Assembly: GCA_013297885.1 (NCBI GenBank)
Contig: JAAFIR010000019.1
Coordinates: 1 to 64,000 of the forward strand
Length of the DNA: 64,000 nt
Direction: 5' to 3'
Source: Leptospirales bacterium
GTDB taxonomy: Bacteria > Spirochaetota > Leptospiria > Leptospirales > Leptospiraceae
Both the position numbers and the translations under genes were made by a program. Below, in pieces: positions 19,505 through 53,885 of this stretch. The stretch's first letter is position 1. The number at the start of each line of letters is the position of its first letter. Below the pieces are notes generated by a model, which made no database searches, was not told the DNA's origin, and worked only from the letters and a program-made list of their open reading frames with translations.

Positions 19505-19677
19505 GCGATAGAGATTGAAGCGTTTCTGAATAGCCTCGGGTTTTAACCCGAGGATTCAGAAGTAGCGAAACTTAACTGCTTCGCAGTTAGCCAGTTTGCG
19601 ATTCGCTTCCAGTGGCAACTGGCAACCTCGGCAAGATTTTGCCTGCGGTTGGTCGAGACGAAGTCTCGAATCGCCCC
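19505..19677 (-). repeat. Structured dispersed repeat, copy D (multi-hairpin)
   Basis: This block fills the roughly 310-bp gap between two minus-strand genes and is visibly richer in GC than its surroundings. Read on the minus strand it begins GGGGCGATTCGAGAC and ends AATCTCTATCGCT, matching the ends of the other copies in this window. It is almost entirely made of hairpins. They include 7-bp TCGAGAC/GTCTCGA with a 3-base loop (19653-19669), 7-bp TAACTGC/GCAGTTA with a 3-base loop (19573-19589), and a two-part stem of 8 bp then 9 bp (TTCTGAAT, then CCTCGGGTT) at 19524-19561. The outermost GCGAT/ATCGC can also pair. Confidence 0.8.
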
Positions 19678-25098: not shown

Positions 25099-25298
25099 TT
25101 GTCAAAGAAAAAAAATTCTTCTAAGCAAGAGTTAGGGATTGAAATGGCATCAAAAAATTTTTTTATAAAATTTTTTGATGAGAATGGAAAGCCCGACCTT
25201 TTTGGAACAAAAAGGGAACTCCCAAATTTAAAAAAAAACTTGAGGCAAAGAAAATTTTTTCATTTGACAATCCTAAAATAAAAAAAATGTATGATGCT
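25099..25298 (+). pseudogene. Frameshifted gene fragment
   Basis: From a TTG at 25099 the frame reads SKKKNSSKQELGIEMASKNF and then FFDENGKPDLFGTKRELP. After a poly-A tract near 25230 the sensible reading continues in another frame as FKKKLEAKKIFSFDNPKIKK, running into MYDAMENK at 25287. Adding one A would join the two. It could be a remnant of a short gene or a spurious upstream extension of the next protein. No family recognised. Confidence 0.35.
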
Positions 25299-30969: not shown

Positions 30970-32951
30970 AATTTTTTATTTTTATATGCACACTTAGCAT
31001 ATTTTCAATAGACCAAGATATTAATCAAATTACTGGTGGTGGTGGAGATTCTGGAAAACCCACTCCACAACAAAACCAAACTAATAATTCAAATTCTGAC
31101 ATAGAAAATTTAAAAAAAGAAATGGAAGAATTAAAAAAAGAAATGAAAGTTTTAAAAGAACAGAAAAAAAATTCTGACCCTGAGTCTAAAACTGCTGAAC
31201 CTTCCAAATCTGAAGAAATAAATCCTGAAGCAAAAAAAGAAGATACTTCTGTTTTAAATAAAACACTTGATGGATCAAAAGATGATGCTCCAAAAGAAAA
31301 TCAGAAAACATATAACTCGTTTAACAGAGATTTGTTTATGAATATTCAAACTCCTGATTTTAAAAAAGCAATTATGGATAGATACCAATGGCAAATGACT
31401 TTTTGGACTCATGGTAATTATACAAATAATTCTGATCTTCGAAGACTAGATAATACAAACCAAACTTCTGTGGATAGAACAGATGATAAAACTAGATTTA
31501 TTGCAGGAGGACTTCAGTTTGATAATTTTTTTCCAATTCATCCGAGATTAGATTTGCGTTTTGATATTTGGAGATTTGGTTTTTGGGGTGGTGACCAATT
31601 AGCTGGTAGAGACACAAATAATGATATACGTCAAACTACTGGTGGAGCAAATACAGTAAATTTTGGTCAATTGTACATTGATGCTCACTTAAAATTAAAT
31701 CCAACTAGATCTAATAAATTCAGCCTAAGAGTTGGAAGACAAGATTATAGAATAGGTGGAAAAATATTTAGAGATTATTACCAAGATGATATTTTAGATG
31801 CTGTAGTTTTAAAATACTACCATCCAAAACTAGGAAGACTTGATTTACTTTTAATAGATGTATTTTCAAATGCACCAGATACAAGAGATGTAAACTTTAT
31901 TCGTTTTTTAAGTTTTGATAACCAACAAGTAAAAAATTTTAATGGGGATTCTGCTACAACTAGGAATGGATTTTTGTATAGACTTCCAATAATCGGTGAA
32001 TCAGAGTTTATTGGAACACATTTAGATGTAAGAGCTTTTTATTATTTTTCACAATTCAGTGGAACAAACCAACCATTTGGTGGAGCAGACAGAACCAATA
32101 ATGGAACAAGTGGAAATTTTATAGATCGCGATTTTGCTGTTATGCGAGGATTTAGAATTAATGGTGGATATGGAACTTGGTTTCGCTCATCATTTACAGT
32201 TGCTGATAGTTTTGGTGTAGATAGAAAACTGCCAACAATATATTTTGAATCTAAAGATGTTGGAAATTCAGGAAAGTCCTATGGAATAGACCTTGAATTT
32301 TCAGCATGGAATAGAAGAATTCGATTTATGCCAACATATTTTTATGCAGATGGTGGAAGGTATTTTGCAGACGGCACACAATATTCTCATGGATTTGTTT
32401 CGATGAAAGGTGACCAAGTTGGTGGGTATTTAACAGACCTAAACTGGGGTGTTCATCCATCTGCATACACATCAGGACAAGGAATTGCAGACCTTCCATA
32501 CAATAGAGACAGAAGATCAGGCACAGAAAAAAAACATTTAGGATTTGCATTTGGAATTTTAGAAAATTTATTTTTAAAATTAGATTGGTGGAGACTAACT
32601 GATACTTCAGAAATTACATTTTTAAATTCTGAAAAGCCAAGCCTTGGAAGAATTTTTAACAACAAAGATTCTATTCCTACAATTGAAAAAGATATTTTAA
32701 TCAACACCTATCAAAGCCTATTTCCAAATAACCAAACTGTTATCAAAGCTTCTAGAAGATTTGGTACACCAATAGGTGAAGAATACAATATTGGTCTTGA
32801 TTGGAATGTATTTAGAGGATTTAAAGTTTGGGCAACATTTGCAGTTTTTCGTCCGATGAGATATTTTACAACACCAGGTCTAATTCAAAATGCTCCAGAA
32901 GGCAGCACAACATTTACTGGATTTCAACTTGGAACCAGTTTGATTTTTTAG
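30966..32951 (+). CDS. Porin-like outer-membrane protein (alginate-export-like)
   Basis: A 661-residue exported protein that starts at TTG 30966, overlapping the upstream stop by 4 bp. After the signal comes a Gly/Asn linker and a Lys/Glu coiled coil (about residues 40-85), a common trimerisation or peptidoglycan-contact device in porins. The rest is a long barrel with repeated aromatic strands (FGQLYIDAHLKLNPTRSNKF; GRQDYRIGGKIFRDY; YFYADGGRY). The layout resembles alginate-export-type porins of about 400-500 residues. It ends SLIF, with the terminal Phe of barrels. The natural substrate is unknown. Confidence 0.75.
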   Translation: MKFFIFICTLSIFSIDQDINQITGGGGDSGKPTPQQNQTNNSNSDIENLKKEMEELKKEMKVLKEQKKNSDPESKTAEPSKSEEINPEAKKEDTSVLNKTLDGSKDDAPKENQKTYNSFNRDLFMNIQTPDFKKAIMDRYQWQMTFWTHGNYTNNSDLRRLDNTNQTSVDRTDDKTRFIAGGLQFDNFFPIHPRLDLRFDIWRFGFWGGDQLAGRDTNNDIRQTTGGANTVNFGQLYIDAHLKLNPTRSNKFSLRVGRQDYRIGGKIFRDYYQDDILDAVVLKYYHPKLGRLDLLLIDVFSNAPDTRDVNFIRFLSFDNQQVKNFNGDSATTRNGFLYRLPIIGESEFIGTHLDVRAFYYFSQFSGTNQPFGGADRTNNGTSGNFIDRDFAVMRGFRINGGYGTWFRSSFTVADSFGVDRKLPTIYFESKDVGNSGKSYGIDLEFSAWNRRIRFMPTYFYADGGRYFADGTQYSHGFVSMKGDQVGGYLTDLNWGVHPSAYTSGQGIADLPYNRDRRSGTEKKHLGFAFGILENLFLKLDWWRLTDTSEITFLNSEKPSLGRIFNNKDSIPTIEKDILINTYQSLFPNNQTVIKASRRFGTPIGEEYNIGLDWNVFRGFKVWATFAVFRPMRYFTTPGLIQNAPEGSTTFTGFQLGTSLIF

Positions 32952-32959
32952 GAGGAATT

Positions 32960-35900
32960 ATGATATTCAAAAAAATTTGGGCGATTCTTTTCCCACTTCT
33001 ATACATTTCGCATAACTCTATTTATCCAAAAAGGGAAAAGTCGAGCCACAAAATAGTTCCGTTTGCTCTCGCAAACCCGCTTCGCGGTATTTTGAGTCTC
33101 TATCGCATAACAGTGAGTAATCGAAAAAAATCATTCTTCAAGCGAAATCGAGGAGGGGTATTTAAATTATCATTTTTGAATAAAGAAAATTCAAAATCTT
33201 TTTCGAAACTAATTTCCGTATTCCCCCCGAAAGCTTCGCTTTCCATAGCCAAGCTATGCTCAAAGCCAGAATCTATATTGTATTTATTGTTCACAATTAT
33301 AACTTCATTTTTAATAAATTGCTCCAAAGGAGATGCAAAGAAAATTTTACCAAATCCAGGTTATATTTTAGGTTCTGCAAGATTTCAAGTATTTTGGTCT
33401 GATCCCGGAGTTTCCAGAGAAACAGCAGTTGATAAAGGAATAGATAATGAATGGGTAAAATTTATTAATGCTGCTGAAAAAAAAGTAGATGTTGCTGTTT
33501 ACAATCTTGGTCGTCAAGTAATCATTGATGCAATTGTTGCTGCTCGTGAAAGAGGAGTAAAAGTGAGATTAGTTGGGGATGTGGACGAATCACCAACTAA
33601 TGGCTACCAAGCAATTTTTCGAACAGATATTCCATTTTCAGTTGGAAACTCAACAGGAATTCAGCACAATAAATTTGCAATTGCTGATGATAAATATATC
33701 ATGATGGGAACTGGAAATCTCACAGATACAGATCTTATGATGAACAATAATAATTTTATGATTATCGAAAGCCCAACACTTGTCCGCTCTTACACTCGTG
33801 AATTTGAACAAATGTTTTTTGGGAAGTATGCTGGTAAAAAAGAACCAAAAACTACTGATAGAACTCATTTTGTTAATGGAACAAAATTAGAATTATATTT
33901 TTCTCCTTATGATGGAGAAGATGCGATGAATCGAATGATTGAACTTGTAGATAATGCAAAAAAAGAAATTACATATATGATTTTTGCACACACCCATGAT
34001 GAGTTAACTACTGCATTAATTAGAGCGGCTAAACGTGGAGTATTGGTTCGAGGAATTCATGATTATACTTTTATTAGAAGCACTTCGATGGAAGCCCCAA
34101 GAATTTATAATGCAGGAAGATTTAATCCAACTGGACCTTTTAATAAAGAAGACGGAAACGAAAATACAAAAACTCCAGGGCTAAGAACTAGTGGTGGAAA
34201 ACTTCATTGCAAAACAATGATCTTTGATGGAAATGTAGTAAGCACTGGTTCATTTAATTGGTCAAATAATGCAATTAATAATAATGACGAAAATATGTTA
34301 GTAATTCATTCACCATTAGTAGCAAATGAATTATCTAATCAATGGAACTCAATTTGGAATTATGGTCGTCCAATCACAAATCAGATCAAACATCCATCAG
34401 GTGATGTTGTAAAACCTGGTGAGGTAGTAATTTCAGAAGTTAACTGGGCTGGTTCATTTAAAAAAGGTGCGAGTTCGGGAAGTCCAGCTAAAGAAGATGT
34501 GTATATTGAATTGTTCAACACAACAGATCGCATAATCGATATTAGCCACTGGGTTATTACTTGGGATGAAGATGAAGTAATTCATTATGCAATCCCAGAT
34601 GAATTTTCTTGGTTTGAGCCAGGTGTTCACAAAATACACCAAAGTAGAGGAAGACTTGAAATTCCACCTAAAGGATATTTTTTATTAAAGAATGCAAATC
34701 TTTCACTTCCAATTTTAAATCCAACTGCATTTGATAATGATTCTTCTGATAATAAATTTTCAGGAACAAAAAACTTTTCTTTAAGCCAAGCTTTTTTAAG
34801 AATAAGACTTTATGATACTAATATGAATTTGATTGATGAAGCTGGTGATGGTTCACCACCAAGTGCTGGGTTGATTGATCCATTTAATTTTAGAACTCAT
34901 TCTATGGAAAGATTTTTTGATTCAACAGGTAAAGCTTTAAATGGAAAACATTTTGGAAGTTGGTATACTTCAAATGGAAATGATGGACTTGGAACAACTC
35001 TTGATCCACTTACAGGCAAAGGTAGACTTTCTGATGATTATTCTATTTGTGAAACAACTAAAGGTTGTACAGTAGGCACACCAAATGCAAGATTTAATTC
35101 TAATTTTGCATCATCAGCATCAAAACCTCGTAATGGAATATTAGGATTAACTAATATACCAATCGAAGCCTATTCTATTTCAGCAACTGAAGCTGTGATT
35201 CAAATGCGTTGGGCTGTTGTTTCTCCTCCATCTGTCTCAGGTACAAATTCAGTTAGAATCAGTCCAACTGATTCATCAAAACTCATAGTTGGAGTTAATC
35301 AAGTTAGTGGTGTTCTATATACTTTACAAGTGAATAATTCAGGTCTTGATATCACAAATAAAACAGTTGACGGAGGATTTGTCTCCTTTACTGGTTTTAC
35401 AGAAAATAAAGCAAAAGTATTTATCTCTAAAATTTTTCCTTCAGAGTCTAGTGCCAATGGTGATAAAATTGAAATTACAGCTTCTAGTTCTGGAAATACA
35501 AAAGGGCTTGGAGTTTATTTTTTTGATTCAAGCACTTTAAATATTCCGACTTTGATATACCAAATAGGTGATGTAAATATTTCTGAAGGACAAAAAATTT
35601 TAGTTACAATGAATAAAACTTTCCTCAGTGATGATAAAAGATTTAATCAAAATCCAAGTATAAATATTAATGCAAATACTGCTTCTCAGTATGATGTTTA
35701 TTCTCCAATTGGCGGACTAACCTCCACAGATTTAATTTTATTTTTATCTTATGATTTGAAAAAAACTTCTGAAGATATGATGTGTTATTCAAACCAAGAT
35801 GGAGATGTTTCAGAAAATTTAATGAAATGGGGATTTAGATATATCTACAAAAATCCAAGTAATTATTTCTTAGACGGAATATTTCCTCTAGATCAAGTAA

Positions 35901-36019
35901 ACGATTTTGAAATTCAAAAAAATTGTGCTAATTTAATCTCTGCAGGTTCTGGAACTTTTCTAGAAAGAGTTGCAAGAAATAGAAGAGCAACTGATTTTAA
36001 ATGTATAGGTTGTGATTAG
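32960..36019 (+). CDS. Phospholipase D-family nuclease with lamin-tail domain
   Basis: About 1019 residues from the ATG at 32960, which has a strong AGGAGG 9 bp upstream. Two HKD motifs are intact: HNKFAIAD at about residue 234 and HCKTMIFD at about 414, as in secreted PLD-type nucleases or phospholipases. A lamin-tail domain begins at about residue 487 (GEVVISEVNWAGS). A second hydrophobic segment with a lipobox (FTIITSFLINC) lies at about residues 110-120. The true leader may therefore start at TTG 33278, and the first 106 codons may be an insertion that includes structured repeat copy C. Either way the product should be a surface lipoprotein. Confidence 0.8.
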   Translation: MIFKKIWAILFPLLYISHNSIYPKREKSSHKIVPFALANPLRGILSLYRITVSNRKKSFFKRNRGGVFKLSFLNKENSKSFSKLISVFPPKASLSIAKLCSKPESILYLLFTIITSFLINCSKGDAKKILPNPGYILGSARFQVFWSDPGVSRETAVDKGIDNEWVKFINAAEKKVDVAVYNLGRQVIIDAIVAARERGVKVRLVGDVDESPTNGYQAIFRTDIPFSVGNSTGIQHNKFAIADDKYIMMGTGNLTDTDLMMNNNNFMIIESPTLVRSYTREFEQMFFGKYAGKKEPKTTDRTHFVNGTKLELYFSPYDGEDAMNRMIELVDNAKKEITYMIFAHTHDELTTALIRAAKRGVLVRGIHDYTFIRSTSMEAPRIYNAGRFNPTGPFNKEDGNENTKTPGLRTSGGKLHCKTMIFDGNVVSTGSFNWSNNAINNNDENMLVIHSPLVANELSNQWNSIWNYGRPITNQIKHPSGDVVKPGEVVISEVNWAGSFKKGASSGSPAKEDVYIELFNTTDRIIDISHWVITWDEDEVIHYAIPDEFSWFEPGVHKIHQSRGRLEIPPKGYFLLKNANLSLPILNPTAFDNDSSDNKFSGTKNFSLSQAFLRIRLYDTNMNLIDEAGDGSPPSAGLIDPFNFRTHSMERFFDSTGKALNGKHFGSWYTSNGNDGLGTTLDPLTGKGRLSDDYSICETTKGCTVGTPNARFNSNFASSASKPRNGILGLTNIPIEAYSISATEAVIQMRWAVVSPPSVSGTNSVRISPTDSSKLIVGVNQVSGVLYTLQVNNSGLDITNKTVDGGFVSFTGFTENKAKVFISKIFPSESSANGDKIEITASSSGNTKGLGVYFFDSSTLNIPTLIYQIGDVNISEGQKILVTMNKTFLSDDKRFNQNPSININANTASQYDVYSPIGGLTSTDLILFLSYDLKKTSEDMMCYSNQDGDVSENLMKWGFRYIYKNPSNYFLDGIFPLDQVNDFEIQKNCANLISAGSGTFLERVARNRRATDFKCIGCD
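32979..33106 (+). repeat. Structured dispersed repeat, copy C, inside the PLD gene
   Basis: It begins GGGCGATTCTTTTCCC, six codons after the ATG at 32960, and ends TCTCTATCGC. CTTTTCCC pairs with GGGAAAAG. The inner core reads CAAAATA, then hairpin GTTTGC/GCAAAC, hairpin CCGC/GCGG, then TATTTTG. It matches copies A and B, but with different bases in paired positions. Further hairpins (GAAAGC/GCTTTC and CATAGC/GCTATG, near 33231-33256) suggest the inserted block reaches about 33270. The reading frame stays open throughout. Confidence 0.8.
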
Positions 36020-39369: not shown

Positions 39370-39460
39370 AGCGAAAGTGATTAGCGAAGCGAAGCGGTTC
39401 ACTGAAAGGGAAGTAGCGGAAAGCACGCTTCGCTGGTTTTTGCATTCGCAAAAATTCGCC
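39370..39460 (-). repeat. Structured dispersed repeat, copy E
   Basis: It lies between thrS and the hybrid kinase. On the minus strand it begins TTGGCGAATTTTTGC and ends AATCACTTTCGCTTG, like copy F at its start and like the other copies at its end. It contains a perfect 9-bp stem AGCGAAGCG/CGCTTCGCT (39383-39391 with 39426-39434). Another hairpin is TTTTTGC/GCAAAAA with a 4-base loop (39437-39454). The outer GCGAA and TTCGC pair. Confidence 0.65.
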
Positions 39461-41501: not shown

Positions 41502-41652
41502 GGGCTATGTCAGTTTTAGAGGATGGAAGTTAGATGGTAGAGAATAGAAATTCTAGAATCACATCCTCTAAACTGACCCGAGCTACAAAATGGTTCCGTC
41601 TGCCAGAGGCAGACCCGCTTGGAAAGCAAGCGGCATTTTGTATCTCTATCGC
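41502..41652 (+). repeat. Structured dispersed repeat, copy A
   Basis: It lies between lpdA and thrS. It begins GGGCTATGTCAG and ends ATCTCTATCGC. A long stem pairs GTCAGTTTTAGAGGATG (41509-41525) with CATCCTCTAAACTGAC (41562-41577). The core CCGAGCTACAAAATGG opens a three-stem unit: outer ACAAAATG/CATTTTGT, inner GTCTGCC/GGCAGAC, and inner CCGCTTG/CAAGCGG. Copy B has the same core with a different long stem and different inner hairpin, but pairing is kept. Confidence 0.85.
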
Positions 41653-41665
41653 GTTAATCAAATAC

Positions 41666-43087
41666 TTATATATTAATAGCTTCACCAAGCACATCAGCAG
41701 CAGCTTCCATCACACCCTCAGATAAAGTTGGATGTGCATGAATGATAGTTGCGAGATTGTGAACTGTTAGCTCAGTGGAAGCACCAACCATAAATTCAGA
41801 AATGAGTTCAGTTGCTGAAGCACCAATGATATGAGCTCCAAGAATTTCGCCATGTTCTTTACCTGCTACAATTTTTACCATACCAGTTGTTTGACCCACA
41901 GCTTGTGCTCTTCCGCTTGCAGTAAATGGGAAGCGACCAATTTTAATTTCATAACCTTGTTCAATTGCTTTTTTTTCTGACATACCAACTGAAGCAACTT
42001 CTGGATGACAATATGTACAACCAGGAATTAAATCATAATTAATCGCTTCGTAGTGAATATGAGAATTTTTTCCAAGTTCAATTGCAATTGCCTCAGCTGC
42101 TTTGATTCCTTCCATCGAAGCAACATGTGCAAGAAGTGGAGCTCCCGTGCAATCCCCAATTGCATAAATGGTTTCTGTGTTTGTTCTAAATTTAGAATCT
42201 ATGTTGATAAAACCTTTGTTAAGATTTACACCAACTTCTTCTAATTTTAAATTTTCTGTGTTTGGTATAAGACCAATCCCAACAATAATTTTGTCGTATT
42301 CAATTTTTTCTTTTTCACCAGAAACTTTTTCTGAAATTTCTAACACGATAGAATTTGATTTTTTTTCAAAACCAGTTACACCTTTTGAAAGATGAAGTTT
42401 GATTCCTCTTTTTTTAAAACTAGTTTCAAGGACTTTAGAAATTTCTTCATCTTCATTTGGAAGCAAATGATCTAAGTATTCAATGATTTCCACTTCAGAA
42501 CCCATTGAAGAATAAAAATCTGCAAACTCAACTCCAATTGCACCAGCACCAATAATTCCTAATTTTTTTGGAATGGTTTTTTCCACCATTGCTTCTCTAC
42601 TTGATAAAACTAAATTGGAATCAAAATCTAATTTTGGAAATGGTTTTGACCTTGCACCTGTTGCAACAATAAATCTATCTGACTCTACTTCTGTTTCTTT
42701 GCCACTTGAATCAATTACAGAAATTAAATTTTTAGTTTTAAAACTTGCTTTACCATAAATAACCCCAACTTTATTTTTTTTCATTAAAAAATCCACACCT
42801 TTAGCCATTTGGTCTGCAACTTTTCGTGACCTACTGATTACTTTATCAAAATCTGGTTTTGGCAAATCTGAAATAATTCCAAATTCATTTGCGTGTTTCA
42901 TTTCTTCAAGTAGATGAGCTGATTGTAATAAAGCTTTTGTTGGAATACAACCCCAGTTTAAACAAATTCCACCTAATTTTTCCATTTCGATGATTGCTGT
43001 TTTAAAACCTAATTGTGCGGATCGAATTGCTGCAACATATCCTCCAGGTCCTGCTCCAATTACAACTACTTGAAATTTCTCTGCCAT
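41666..43087 (-). CDS. lpdA: Dihydrolipoyl dehydrogenase
   Basis: FAD enzyme (E3) that reoxidises the lipoyl groups of 2-oxoacid dehydrogenase complexes. FAD-binding GAGPGGYVAA at residues 11-20, the redox disulphide Cys42-Cys47 in GGICLNWGCIPTK, the NAD-binding GAGAIGVEFADFYSSMG, and the C-terminal dimer interface with the catalytic His-Glu pair (HAHPTLSEGVMEA). The length of 473 residues is normal. The E1 and E2 subunits are not in this window, so it probably serves complexes encoded elsewhere. Confidence 0.96.
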   Translation of the reverse strand: MAEKFQVVVIGAGPGGYVAAIRSAQLGFKTAIIEMEKLGGICLNWGCIPTKALLQSAHLLEEMKHANEFGIISDLPKPDFDKVISRSRKVADQMAKGVDFLMKKNKVGVIYGKASFKTKNLISVIDSSGKETEVESDRFIVATGARSKPFPKLDFDSNLVLSSREAMVEKTIPKKLGIIGAGAIGVEFADFYSSMGSEVEIIEYLDHLLPNEDEEISKVLETSFKKRGIKLHLSKGVTGFEKKSNSIVLEISEKVSGEKEKIEYDKIIVGIGLIPNTENLKLEEVGVNLNKGFINIDSKFRTNTETIYAIGDCTGAPLLAHVASMEGIKAAEAIAIELGKNSHIHYEAINYDLIPGCTYCHPEVASVGMSEKKAIEQGYEIKIGRFPFTASGRAQAVGQTTGMVKIVAGKEHGEILGAHIIGASATELISEFMVGASTELTVHNLATIIHAHPTLSEGVMEAAADVLGEAINI

Positions 43088-43185
43088 ATAAAATCCTTTT
43101 TGTATTTCAAAGATTAAGACTTAAATCAAAAAAAAAGAAATCAAGTCATTTTTTATTTTTTGAAAATGAGGAAAGTGAAATGTTT

Positions 43186-43297
43186 GGGCGATGTCTCATG
43201 AAAAAGTAAAGATTTTTTCATGAGACCCGAGCTACAAAATGGTTCCGTCTCTTCGAGACCCGCTTGGCAAGCTTGCTGCATTTTGTATCTCTATCGC
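43186..43297 (+). repeat. Structured dispersed repeat, copy B
   Basis: It lies between lpdA and vapC. It begins GGGCGATGTCTCATG and ends ATCTCTATCGCTTG. The long stem pairs GTCTCATGAAAAA (43193-43205) with TTTTTTCATGAGAC (43213-43226). The core CCGAGCTACAAAATGG is the same as in copy A. The inner hairpin is GTCTC/GAGAC in place of GTCTGCC/GGCAGAC, and CATTTTGT closes it. GCGAT at the start pairs with ATCGC at the end. Confidence 0.85.
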
Positions 43298-43312
43298 TTG
43301 AATTGTAAAATT

Positions 43313-43660
43313 TTACAAAATCTGATTTGCAATTTTTTTTAGTACAGAATCAAATGTCCAGATTTCAGAATTGTTCATTCTGGCAGATGCAAGTAAATGA
43401 ATGTCAACAAGACCTAATCCTTTTCCAATTAGATTTTCTTTGATAACAAAAAGTCTCATTTTATCTTCTGAAATAATTTCAAGAGTTTGAATTTTTTCTA
43501 ATTTAGTTTGGATTTCTTTTTTTAAACCACCAATTACTAGTTCAGTTAAAACATATGGATGAAGAAAAACTTGGTCTTGTTCAATTAATTCAGGAAGTTT
43601 TTTTGTGTCGTTTTTTCCTTTAAAAAAATCAATCCAAACATTTGTATCAACTAAAATCAC
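43313..43660 (-). CDS. vapC: VapC-type PIN-domain toxin
   Basis: A 115-residue PIN ribonuclease, toxin of a type II toxin-antitoxin pair. It starts MILVDTNVWIDFFKG, with the first catalytic Asp at residue 4 in VDTN. The others lie in LTELV, GLGLVDIHLL and WTFDSVL. It starts at GTG 43660, sharing one base with the stop codon of vapB, so the two genes are translationally coupled. The usual targets of such toxins are tRNAs or rRNA; here the target is unknown. Confidence 0.88.
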   Translation of the reverse strand: MILVDTNVWIDFFKGKNDTKKLPELIEQDQVFLHPYVLTELVIGGLKKEIQTKLEKIQTLEIISEDKMRLFVIKENLIGKGLGLVDIHLLASARMNNSEIWTFDSVLKKIANQIL

Positions 43661-43845
43661 TAACGAACTCTACGAACTGATTTTATATTTTTTTGTTTAC
43701 CAAAAAGTTTTGCGAGTTCCTTTCTTTCATTTGCTGAAATTAATTCTCTTAAACCCATTTCCACAATTGCTTTTTTTGTTTTAGTTGGGTACAATTTAGT
43801 AACTGTCTCTAATAAAGTTTCTTCAATATTTAATGTAGTAGTCAT
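43660..43845 (-). CDS. vapB: VapB-type antitoxin
   Basis: About 61 residues from ATG 43845: MTTTLNIEETLLETVTKLYP, then a helix with KAIVEMGLRELI, a ribbon-helix-helix type DNA-binding domain, and a basic C-terminal tail that should wrap the toxin. A start at 43881 would add 12 hydrophobic residues, but the promoter-like elements upstream favour 43845. It should repress its own operon together with VapC. Confidence 0.85.
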   Translation of the reverse strand: MTTTLNIEETLLETVTKLYPTKTKKAIVEMGLRELISANERKELAKLFGKQKNIKSVRRVR

Positions 43846-43852
43846 ATATAAA

Positions 43853-43881
43853 AATATATTCATTGATATATAAAATTTCAA
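43853..43881 (-). promoter_or_regulatory. vapBC promoter, placed for a leaderless mRNA
   Basis: On the minus strand a -35 box TTGAAA (43881-43876) and a -10 box TATATT (43858-43853) lie 17 bp apart. The -10 box is 7 bp from the vapB ATG at 43845, so transcription would begin at the start codon. A short TATATATC/GAATATATT-rich region overlaps it and could be the VapB operator. Inferred. Confidence 0.55.
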
Positions 43882-53748: not shown

Positions 53749-53885
53749 AGCGAAAACGATCAACTCGTGGTCAAAAAATTGTGGATGCAATTTTTTTGAC
53801 CGAAGAGGCGAGCGTGTTTTTTGCAAGCCTCAATTTAGAAAAATCTTCTTTTTGTGCAAGTGATTGGTGAAGCAAAAATTCGCCC
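53749..53885 (-). repeat. Structured dispersed repeat, copy F
   Basis: It lies in the 335-bp gap before sucC; the rest of the gap is AT-rich with nothing more recognised. On the minus strand it begins TTGGGCGAATTTTTGC, as copy E nearly does, and ends GATCGTTTTCGCTAG. A hairpin pairs GGTCAAAAAATTG (53769-53781) with CAATTTTTTTGACC (53788-53801). GAGGC and GCCTC (53805-53831) form another stem. The outer GCGAA and TTCGC pair. Confidence 0.6.

What the first reader, a model, noticed from the sequence alone, without database searches (positions are those of the whole stretch)
41502..43297. Dispersed repeat family with covarying helices (copies A and B)
Copies A (41502-41652) and B (43186-43297) share the order GGGC, variable long stem, CCGAGCTACAAAATGG, variable hairpin, CCGCTTGG, GCATTTTGT, ATCTCTATCGC. 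The long stem is GTCAGTTTTAGAGGATG in A and GTCTCATGAAAAA in B, each with its own reverse complement. The inner hairpin is GTCTGCC/GGCAGAC in A and GTCTC/GAGAC in B. Sequence changes while pairing stays, which means the fold is what is kept. It may be a miniature mobile element moved by a host transposase, or a structured RNA. I do not recognise it as a named element.
Basis: seen in the sequence. Interest (0 to 1): 0.85.

Follow-up and report, generated by a model that had tools for sequence, protein, structure and literature searches.

The report
DNA-folding repeat family, kept by shape
This bacterium carries several hundred copies of a small branched repeat whose letters keep changing while its folded shape is preserved; the pattern of changes points to folded single-stranded DNA (as in known jumping palindromes), not RNA, and another mobile element uses the repeats as its landing site.

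Summary
Copies A and B belong to a family with at least 95 copies in this genome ("type A"). It is part of a superfamily at about one copy per 10 kb (7 in this window; several hundred per genome by extrapolation). No copy was found in 3 same-genus and ~390 same-phylum genomes. Every copy has the same architecture: TTTGG, P1, a variable P2 hairpin, a pyrimidine-C linker, P3 with an invariant C·T mismatch, hairpins P4 and P5, the P1 return arm and an A/T-rich tail. Across 85 aligned copies, 98.5% of 2125 pair cells are Watson-Crick, and 21 of 25 pairs changed on both sides. Only 4 cells are G·T, against 7.7% in this genome's tRNAs. That argues against RNA. Hairpin loops are GNA or GNNA on the opposite strand, the stable DNA mini-hairpin loops, and that strand folds better in 90 of 93 copies. 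I conclude that the conserved entity is a folded single-stranded DNA element, probably non-autonomous and mobile, working like REPINs or integron attC sites but formally neither. The enzyme is not identified. An IS110 element inserts into type-B copies, and its guide sequence matches them. Organism not named.

The parts
41502..41652 (+). Copy A, whole element (GG lead to P1 3' arm)
   Evidence: sequence; covariance-model hit G000:C50:41578-41652, 71.5 bits; fold z -5.2
41504..41508 (+). Copy A P1 5' arm GCTAT (pairs with 41648-41652 ATCGC, one mismatch)
41509..41577 (+). Copy A P2 variable hairpin (GTCAGTTTTAGAGGATG ... CATCCTCTAAACTGAC)
41580..41592 (+). Copy A P3 5' arm GAGcTACAAAATG, pairs with 41634-41646 with a conserved C.T mismatch
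41598..41614 (+). Copy A P4 hairpin GTCTGCC-AGA-GGCAGAC
41615..41633 (+). Copy A P5 hairpin CCGCTTG-GAAAG-CAAGCGG
41634..41652 (+). Copy A P3 3' arm, invariant T, and P1 3' arm (CATTTTGTATCTC-T-ATCGC)
43186..43297 (+). Copy B, whole element
   Evidence: sequence; covariance-model hit G000:C50:43227-43297, 75.3 bits; fold z -3.8
43188..43192 (+). Copy B P1 5' arm GCGAT (pairs with 43293-43297 ATCGC)
43193..43226 (+). Copy B P2 variable hairpin GTCTCATGAAAAAGT..ATTTTTTCATGAGAC
43229..43241 (+). Copy B P3 5' arm (pairs with 43279-43291)
43247..43259 (+). Copy B P4 hairpin GTCTC-TTC-GAGAC (loop reads GAA on the opposite strand)
43260..43278 (+). Copy B P5 hairpin region
43279..43317 (+). Copy B P3 3' arm, invariant T, P1 3' arm and weakly conserved tail (family consensus TWGTATTGAAAAAWTTTT)
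32979..33106 (+). Third type-A copy (P1 GCGAT/ATCGC; P2 CTTTTCCC/GGGAAAAG)
   Evidence: (58.1 bits)
25129..25223 (-). Type-B copy (P1 GAGTT/AACTC, P3a GGG/CCC)
   Evidence: motif-free architecture scan
53750..53885 (-). Type-B-like copy (P1 GCGAA/TTCGC, P3a ACG/CGT)
   Evidence: motif-free architecture scan
39371..39459 (-). Diverged type-B-like copy (GGCGAATTTTTGC ... CACTTTCGC-TTGTATTGGAAAAA), limits approximate
   Evidence: sequence printed; the arm pairing reported there for this hit is spurious
19505..19571 (-). Type-B copy, 3' part (TTTCGCTAC..hairpin..CGCTTCAATCTC-TATCGC); 5' limit not determined

Best explanation
The copies are non-autonomous, dispersed repeats whose conserved, recognised form is folded single-stranded DNA: the strand opposite to the one in the finding, read 5'-(TTTTTCAATACTA)-GCGAT-A-GAG... 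. P1, P2 and P3 meet in one junction; P3, P4 and P5 meet in a second. An invariant mismatch (C.T on the given strand, A.G on the folded strand) and fixed single-stranded linkers mark the fold. When the strand is exposed (replication, repair or supercoil extrusion) it folds, helped by GNA/GNNA mini-hairpin loops. A strand-specific enzyme that reads shape and a few unpaired bases then copies or moves it elsewhere, so helix sequences drift freely as long as both arms match. Shown: the architecture, strict Watson-Crick covariation, near-absence of wobble, loop and stability bias to one strand, copy number, confinement to this genome among those searched, dispersal. Inferred: that the folded strand is the substrate, that it is mobile now, and that an HUH/Y1 or tyrosine-recombinase type enzyme acts in trans.
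For: (1) 95 copies by covariance model, E<=1e-3, plus about 6 with a second model; 0 in 60 relatives and 0 in 392 other same-phylum genomes. A motif-free architecture scan gives about 9 copies in 91 kb of own-genome tRNA loci and 0 in 67 kb of relatives. (2) Covariation: 21/25 pairs changed on both sides, 430 two-sided cells (shuffled mean 106, sd 12), 98.7% paired against 37-43% when slid by 1-3 columns. Nine fully paired P1 sequences and 32 different 5-bp P2 stems cannot be one inherited change. (3) DNA, not RNA: 2094 Watson-Crick, 4 G.T, 13 A.C, 14 other of 2125 cells; tRNA stems of this genome have 53 G.T of 688, Fisher p about 1e-28. (4) Strand: 84 of 117 triloops are TNC on the given strand, i.e. 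GNA on the other, and 1 is GNA on the given strand; d(GNA) loops make unusually stable DNA mini-hairpins (Yoshizawa 1997 and Hirao 1994, as cited in PMC6479982). The other strand is more stable with DNA parameters in 90/93 copies. (5) Invariant C.T mismatch and invariant T in 85/85 copies resemble the mismatch/bulge that TnpA-REP needs (PMC8266576). (6) Two identical copies whose flanks diverge immediately before (T)TGGGC. (7) Precedents: REPIN hairpins show compensatory changes (PMC3116915); attC sites are recognised by structure on one folded strand (PMC2727003, abstract).
Against: No enzyme is tied to the element. The only RAYT-like gene (C42:66004) is bracketed by another palindrome family. 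No empty site could be shown, because gene order around the sites tested is not conserved even within the genus. RNA parameters also favour the opposite strand (76/93). The excess of A.C over G.T is weak (13 to 4, p 0.05). A GC-skew orientation bias seen by sign in type A (60:32) did not repeat in type B, so a lagging-strand link is unsupported. Loop constancy may partly be common ancestry.
Confidence: 0.6

Rival explanations
1. A structured non-coding RNA, or an RNA element in mRNAs, dispersed over the genome; selection acts on the RNA fold.
For: Strong covariation in five helices; stable RNA fold.
Against: G.T pairs 0.19% against 7.7% in tRNAs of the same genome. Copies lie in all four gene-orientation classes (29 -/-, 22 convergent, 19 divergent, 17 +/+), so no consistent transcript. 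No Rfam match. Tetraloops on the more stable strand are GNNA rather than GNRA.
Confidence: 0.08
2. Mutational palindrome correction: template switching keeps making the arms of old inverted repeats match, so the covariation needs no function.
For: Explains absence of wobble and of strand preference; P2 stems and nested hairpins look freely rewritten.
Against: An interior C.T mismatch is kept in 85/85 copies, as are the unpaired T and (84/85) the linker C; correction would erase the mismatch. Short helices such as P1 (5 bp closing 70-180 nt) are not expected to be corrected efficiently.
Confidence: 0.1
3. A host-functional DNA site (cruciform bound by a nucleoid, topoisomerase or repair protein) kept at each locus by selection.
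For: Each copy is nearly unique in sequence yet intact, mostly intergenic, about 1 per 10 kb.
Against: Absent from all relatives tested, including three of the same genus; identical copies at two loci indicate spread; an IS110 interrupts many type-B copies.
Confidence: 0.12
4. Recombination sites of an integron-integrase/Xer-like tyrosine recombinase that also occurs in two nearly identical copies in this genome (attC/attI-like sites).
For: 3' ends of two almost identical genes at contig ends C51:2-184 and C20:30206-30385; best family TIGR02249 integron integrase, 81 bits over 59 aa. Identical type-A copies sit at C26/C39 contig ends that also run into a missing two-copy repeat. attC sites are structure-defined, bottom-strand ssDNA (PMC2727003, abstract).
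Against: Not over the family cut-off; XerC/XerD score nearly as well. P1 has no RYYYAAC/GTTRRRY core: it reads GCGTT..AACGC or GCGAT..ATCGC. Copies are scattered, not in a cassette array. The link C26/C39-integrase-C51/C20 is a guess.
Confidence: 0.1

Closest known systems
REP / REPIN sequences and their RAYT (TnpA-REP) transposases
   Same: Hundreds of intergenic palindromic copies per genome; strand-specific folded ssDNA; conserved mismatch required for recognition in one group (PMC8266576); compensatory changes in REPIN hairpins (PMC3116915); a single-copy RAYT-like gene exists here.
   Different: 82-192 nt with two junctions and up to five helices, not a 20-50 nt hairpin preceded by GTAG; sequence hardly conserved; the RAYT here is flanked by CAGTGGGTNNNNACCCACTG palindromes, not by type-A copies.
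Integron attC sites
   Same: Recognised by structure, mainly as the bottom strand; variable terminal stem; conserved extrahelical bases (PMC2727003, PMC6393395; abstracts, plus own knowledge).
   Different: No R/L core boxes, no cassette array, three-way junctions instead of one imperfect hairpin.
IS200/IS605 ends and derived miniature elements
   Same: Subterminal ssDNA hairpins with unpaired bases bound by a Y1 transposase (discussed in PMC8266576).
   Different: No full-length parent element found; helix sequences not fixed.
REP and attC as targets of IS110/IS1111 elements (bridge RNA / seekRNA)
   Same: ISPa11 targets REPs; ISKpn4 and ISPst6 target attC (PMC11187229). Here an IS110 inserts into type-B copies and carries matching guide letters.
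   Different: This describes what lands in the repeat, not what moves the repeat.
BOX, ERIC and other small dispersed repeats; Borrelia plasmid repeats with compensatory changes (PMC2674063)
   Same: Dispersed intergenic repeats with stem-loop potential; compensatory changes reported in Borrelia.
   Different: Those are classed by sequence; here about 100 copies in one genome share architecture with nearly every stem rewritten.

Membership tests
REP/REPIN (RAYT-mobilised) | 20-50 nt palindrome preceded by GTAG (or a similar tetranucleotide) | tested here: not met
   Element 82-192 nt, median 122; 5' lead is TTTGG, no GTAG
REP/REPIN (RAYT-mobilised) | Cognate copies immediately flank the RAYT gene | tested here: inconclusive
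   One type-B-like copy about 470-740 bp upstream, not unlikely by chance at this density; the closest repeats are CAGTGGGT palindromes
REP/REPIN (RAYT-mobilised) | Y1/HUH RAYT gene in the genome | tested here: met
   C42:66004, PF01797 43 bits, over its cut-off; NF047646 44.8 bits, below its cut-off of 80
Integron attC | RYYYAAC ... GTTRRRY core boxes at the base of the fold | tested here: not met
   P1 sequences listed
Integron attC | Single-stranded bottom-strand recognition with extrahelical bases | not testable with these tools
   Only the fold, loop bias and invariant unpaired bases are seen
Integron attC | IntI gene in the genome | tested here: inconclusive
   Two C-terminal fragments at contig ends, below the family cut-off
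DDE-type MITE | Terminal inverted repeats with target-site duplication and a parent IS | tested here: inconclusive
   P1 is a 5-bp inverted repeat but the 3' tail lies outside it; no duplication or parent recognised
Known Rfam RNA family | Match at gathering threshold | tested here: not met
   0 matches in the window
Selected RNA structure | G-U pairs tolerated at ordinary frequency | tested here: not met
   0.19% against 7.7% in tRNAs

The most novel reading that the evidence does not exclude
A replicating DNA element whose heritable identity is a multi-branched ssDNA shape rather than a sequence. Hundreds of copies with rewritten stems would be moved by one shape-reading recombinase, possibly the two-copy integron-integrase-like enzyme, which would make it an 'integron site' that spreads by itself outside cassette arrays.
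Probability: 0.15. Interest if true: 0.85.

Novelty: new variant of a known kind. Interest (0 to 1): 0.62.

Why it matters
It is an unusually clean natural experiment. About 100 type-A copies in one genome share a five-helix fold while almost every stem has been rewritten with matching partners and almost no G·T intermediates. That lets one ask from sequence alone whether the folded molecule is RNA or DNA, and which strand folds; the answer here is DNA and the opposite strand. If a mobilising enzyme is found, it would be a shape-reading DNA enzyme with an unusually complex ssDNA substrate. The IS110 that lands in the same repeats, with guide letters that follow its targets, links the family to bridge-RNA recombination.

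Tried and rejected
Rfam: no hit. Exact 17- and 19-mers of the 3' arm in 2.9 M viral contigs and 257 Gb of named genomes: only chance hits without the architecture. Empty sites: thrS-lpd, parE-trxB, mcm-motA and fumC flanks are not syntenic in the genus; joined flanks of 94 copies against all fetched DNA gave only A/T-rich coincidences. RAYT as mobiliser: not excluded, but its nearest repeats are another family. GC-skew orientation bias: seen by sign test in type A, not in type B. Pairing of the two missing-repeat contig ends (C26/C39 with C51/C20): not provable, because several 2-3 kb contigs read as N. A pseudogene at C51:68018 resembling the integrase did not yield a usable copy. First-look limits (13-150 candidates scored per genome) mean that weak copies in relatives could have been missed.

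Full report
What is there. Copies A (41502-41652) and B (43186-43297) are real and fold far better than dinucleotide shuffles. The window is contig C50 of a 4.6 Mb genome (window G+C 29%) that I could not name. A core of 16 bases occurs 49 times in the genome with up to 2 mismatches, against once for the reversed control. A 64-position covariance model built from 28 copies finds 95 copies at E<=1e-3, and a second model adds about six.

Anatomy. On the strand of the finding: TTT-GG, P1 (5 bp; GCGAT/ATCGC in 52 copies, also GCGTT/AACGC, GAGTT/AACTC, GCGAA/TTCGC and singletons), P2 (a hairpin of 9-124 nt, different in most copies), linker CC or TC, P3 (GAG-C-TACAAAATG with CATTTTGTA-T-CTC, a C·T mismatch in all 85 aligned copies), linker GTTCC or CTTG, hairpins P4 and P5, an invariant T, the P1 return arm, and a tail with consensus TWGTATTGAAAAAWTTTT. 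P1/P2/P3 and P3/P4/P5 form two three-way junctions. Total length 82-192 nt, median 122.

Covariation. In the trimmed alignment of 85 distinct copies (P2, P4 and P5 loops replaced by constant letters), 98.7% of cells pair, 21 of 25 pairs have two-sided changes, and 430 cells are two-sided against 106 ± 12 in shuffles; sliding the partner by 1-3 columns drops pairing to 37-43%. There are 9 fully paired P1 sequences, 32 different perfect 5-bp P2 ends, 38 P4 stems and 29 P5 stems, so common descent of a few changes cannot explain it.

RNA or DNA. Of the 2125 pair cells, 2094 are Watson-Crick, 4 G·T, 13 A·C and 14 other. The 32 distinct tRNA genes read from loci of this genome have 53 G·T in 688 pairs. 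An RNA under selection should show G·U intermediates; this family does not. Triloops are TNC in 84 of 117 cases on the given strand, so GNA on the other; four-base loops are mostly TNNC, so GNNA. d(GNA) loops give unusually stable DNA mini-hairpins (literature cited in PMC6479982); the same for d(GNNA) is my own knowledge. With DNA energy parameters the other strand is more stable in 90 of 93 copies, with RNA parameters in 76 of 93. The weak excess of A·C over G·T has the same sign. I infer that the folded molecule is the opposite strand as single-stranded DNA.

Superfamily. A second type (B) shares TTTGG, P1, P2, the linker, P3a with the C·T mismatch, and the tail, but has TTTTCGCTAC..ACGCTACAA and one long hairpin in place of P3b/P4/P5. 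A scan that uses only the architecture, no motif, finds 5 hits in the window (shuffles: mean about 0.6) and about 9 real ones in 91 kb of own-genome tRNA loci, so roughly one copy per 10 kb. It finds none in 67 kb from seven relatives. The type-A model finds none in 60 relatives or in 392 other same-phylum genomes.

Context. Roughly 80 of 94 copies lie between predicted ORFs, in all orientations to their neighbours. Two copies at contig ends C26 and C39 are identical, and their flanks differ immediately before (T)TGGGC. Gene order around the sites tested is not conserved in the genus, so no empty site could be shown.

IS110 landing. Fourteen contig ends and eleven others are the two ends of one multi-copy IS; the C-terminal 83 residues match IS110 family RNA-guided transposase (NF033542, E 5.7e-6). 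Every insertion I read at the non-coding end lies in a type-B copy, at ..CAATC(C/A)CT(T/A)TC^, and the other end is followed by the family tail. The non-coding end carries AAATCCCTTTCAAGG in the ten copies sitting at CCC sites, and CCATCACTTTCAAGG in four copies, of which three sit at CAC sites (one of the ten is read from a short end and does not reach the guide). This agrees with bridge-RNA/seekRNA targeting (PMC11208160, PMC11187229); the guide assignment is mine from sequence only.

Mechanism. Best reading: a non-autonomous ssDNA-folding element copied by a shape-reading enzyme in trans. Working models are REPIN/TnpA-REP, where a mismatch in the stem is needed (PMC8266576) and compensatory changes occur (PMC3116915), and attC, where structure and strand are read rather than sequence (PMC2727003, abstract). 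Membership in either family fails on tested features (GTAG and size; core boxes). Candidate enzymes seen here are one RAYT-like gene, bracketed by an unrelated palindrome family, and two nearly identical integron-integrase/Xer-like genes known only from their 3' ends. Neither is linked to the element by evidence beyond proximity. A purely mutational origin of the covariation is disfavoured by the conserved mismatch.

Limits. Genome searches score only a capped number of candidates. The assembly is fragmented, and several small contigs read as N. The strand inference rests on energetics and loops, not on experiment.

Noticed in passing
contig ends G000:C22, C68, C47, C53, C37, C61, C65, C7, C70, C50 end, C17, C16, C39 end, C3 and C33, C49, C56, C30, C54, C4, C27, C68 start, C35, C70 end, C13 (loci L184-L309): A multi-copy IS110-family element inserts into type-B copies of the repeat; its non-coding end contains target-matching letters that change with the target (CCC form at CCC sites; CAC form at CAC sites in 3 of 4).
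   Followed up: partly
G000:C42:66004-66300 (L125): Single-copy REP-associated Y1 transposase-like gene, bracketed within about 250 bp by CAGTGGGTNNNNACCCACTG palindromes; 79 such palindromes in the genome (<=3 mismatches).
   Followed up: partly
G000:C51:2-184 and G000:C20:30206-30385 (L179, L180): 3' ends of two nearly identical integron-integrase/Xer-like genes at contig ends, so a multi-copy gene lost in an unassembled repeat.
   Followed up: partly
G000:C26:1-126 and C39:1-126 (L015, L019): Two identical type-A copies that start an unassembled two-copy repeat; left flanks differ immediately before (T)TGGGC.
   Followed up: partly
window 32979-33106: Type-A copy overlapping the 5' part of a long frame (32828-36019) that encodes a phospholipase-D-like lipoprotein (by eye); a start with a good ribosome site lies just upstream, so the repeat may be translated.
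   Followed up: no
type-A and type-B tails; contig ends C1, C10, C18, C53, C27; L092 near C37:34537: The tail motif CGTATTGAAAAAT recurs as short iterated units of about 18-22 nt next to some copies.
   Followed up: no
contig ends of G000:C42, C6, C40, C72, C28, C51, C62, C71 and of C29, C47: Other multi-copy insertion sequences (IS3-like, IS256-like by eye) break the assembly.
   Followed up: no
G000:C11 and C8 contig starts (L226, L224): Direct repeat GGTTCAACCCCGCGTATGTGGGGAATAG with unique spacers, a CRISPR array.
   Followed up: no
window 43313-43881: VapBC-like pair next to copy B (PIN-domain toxin, PF01850).
   Followed up: no
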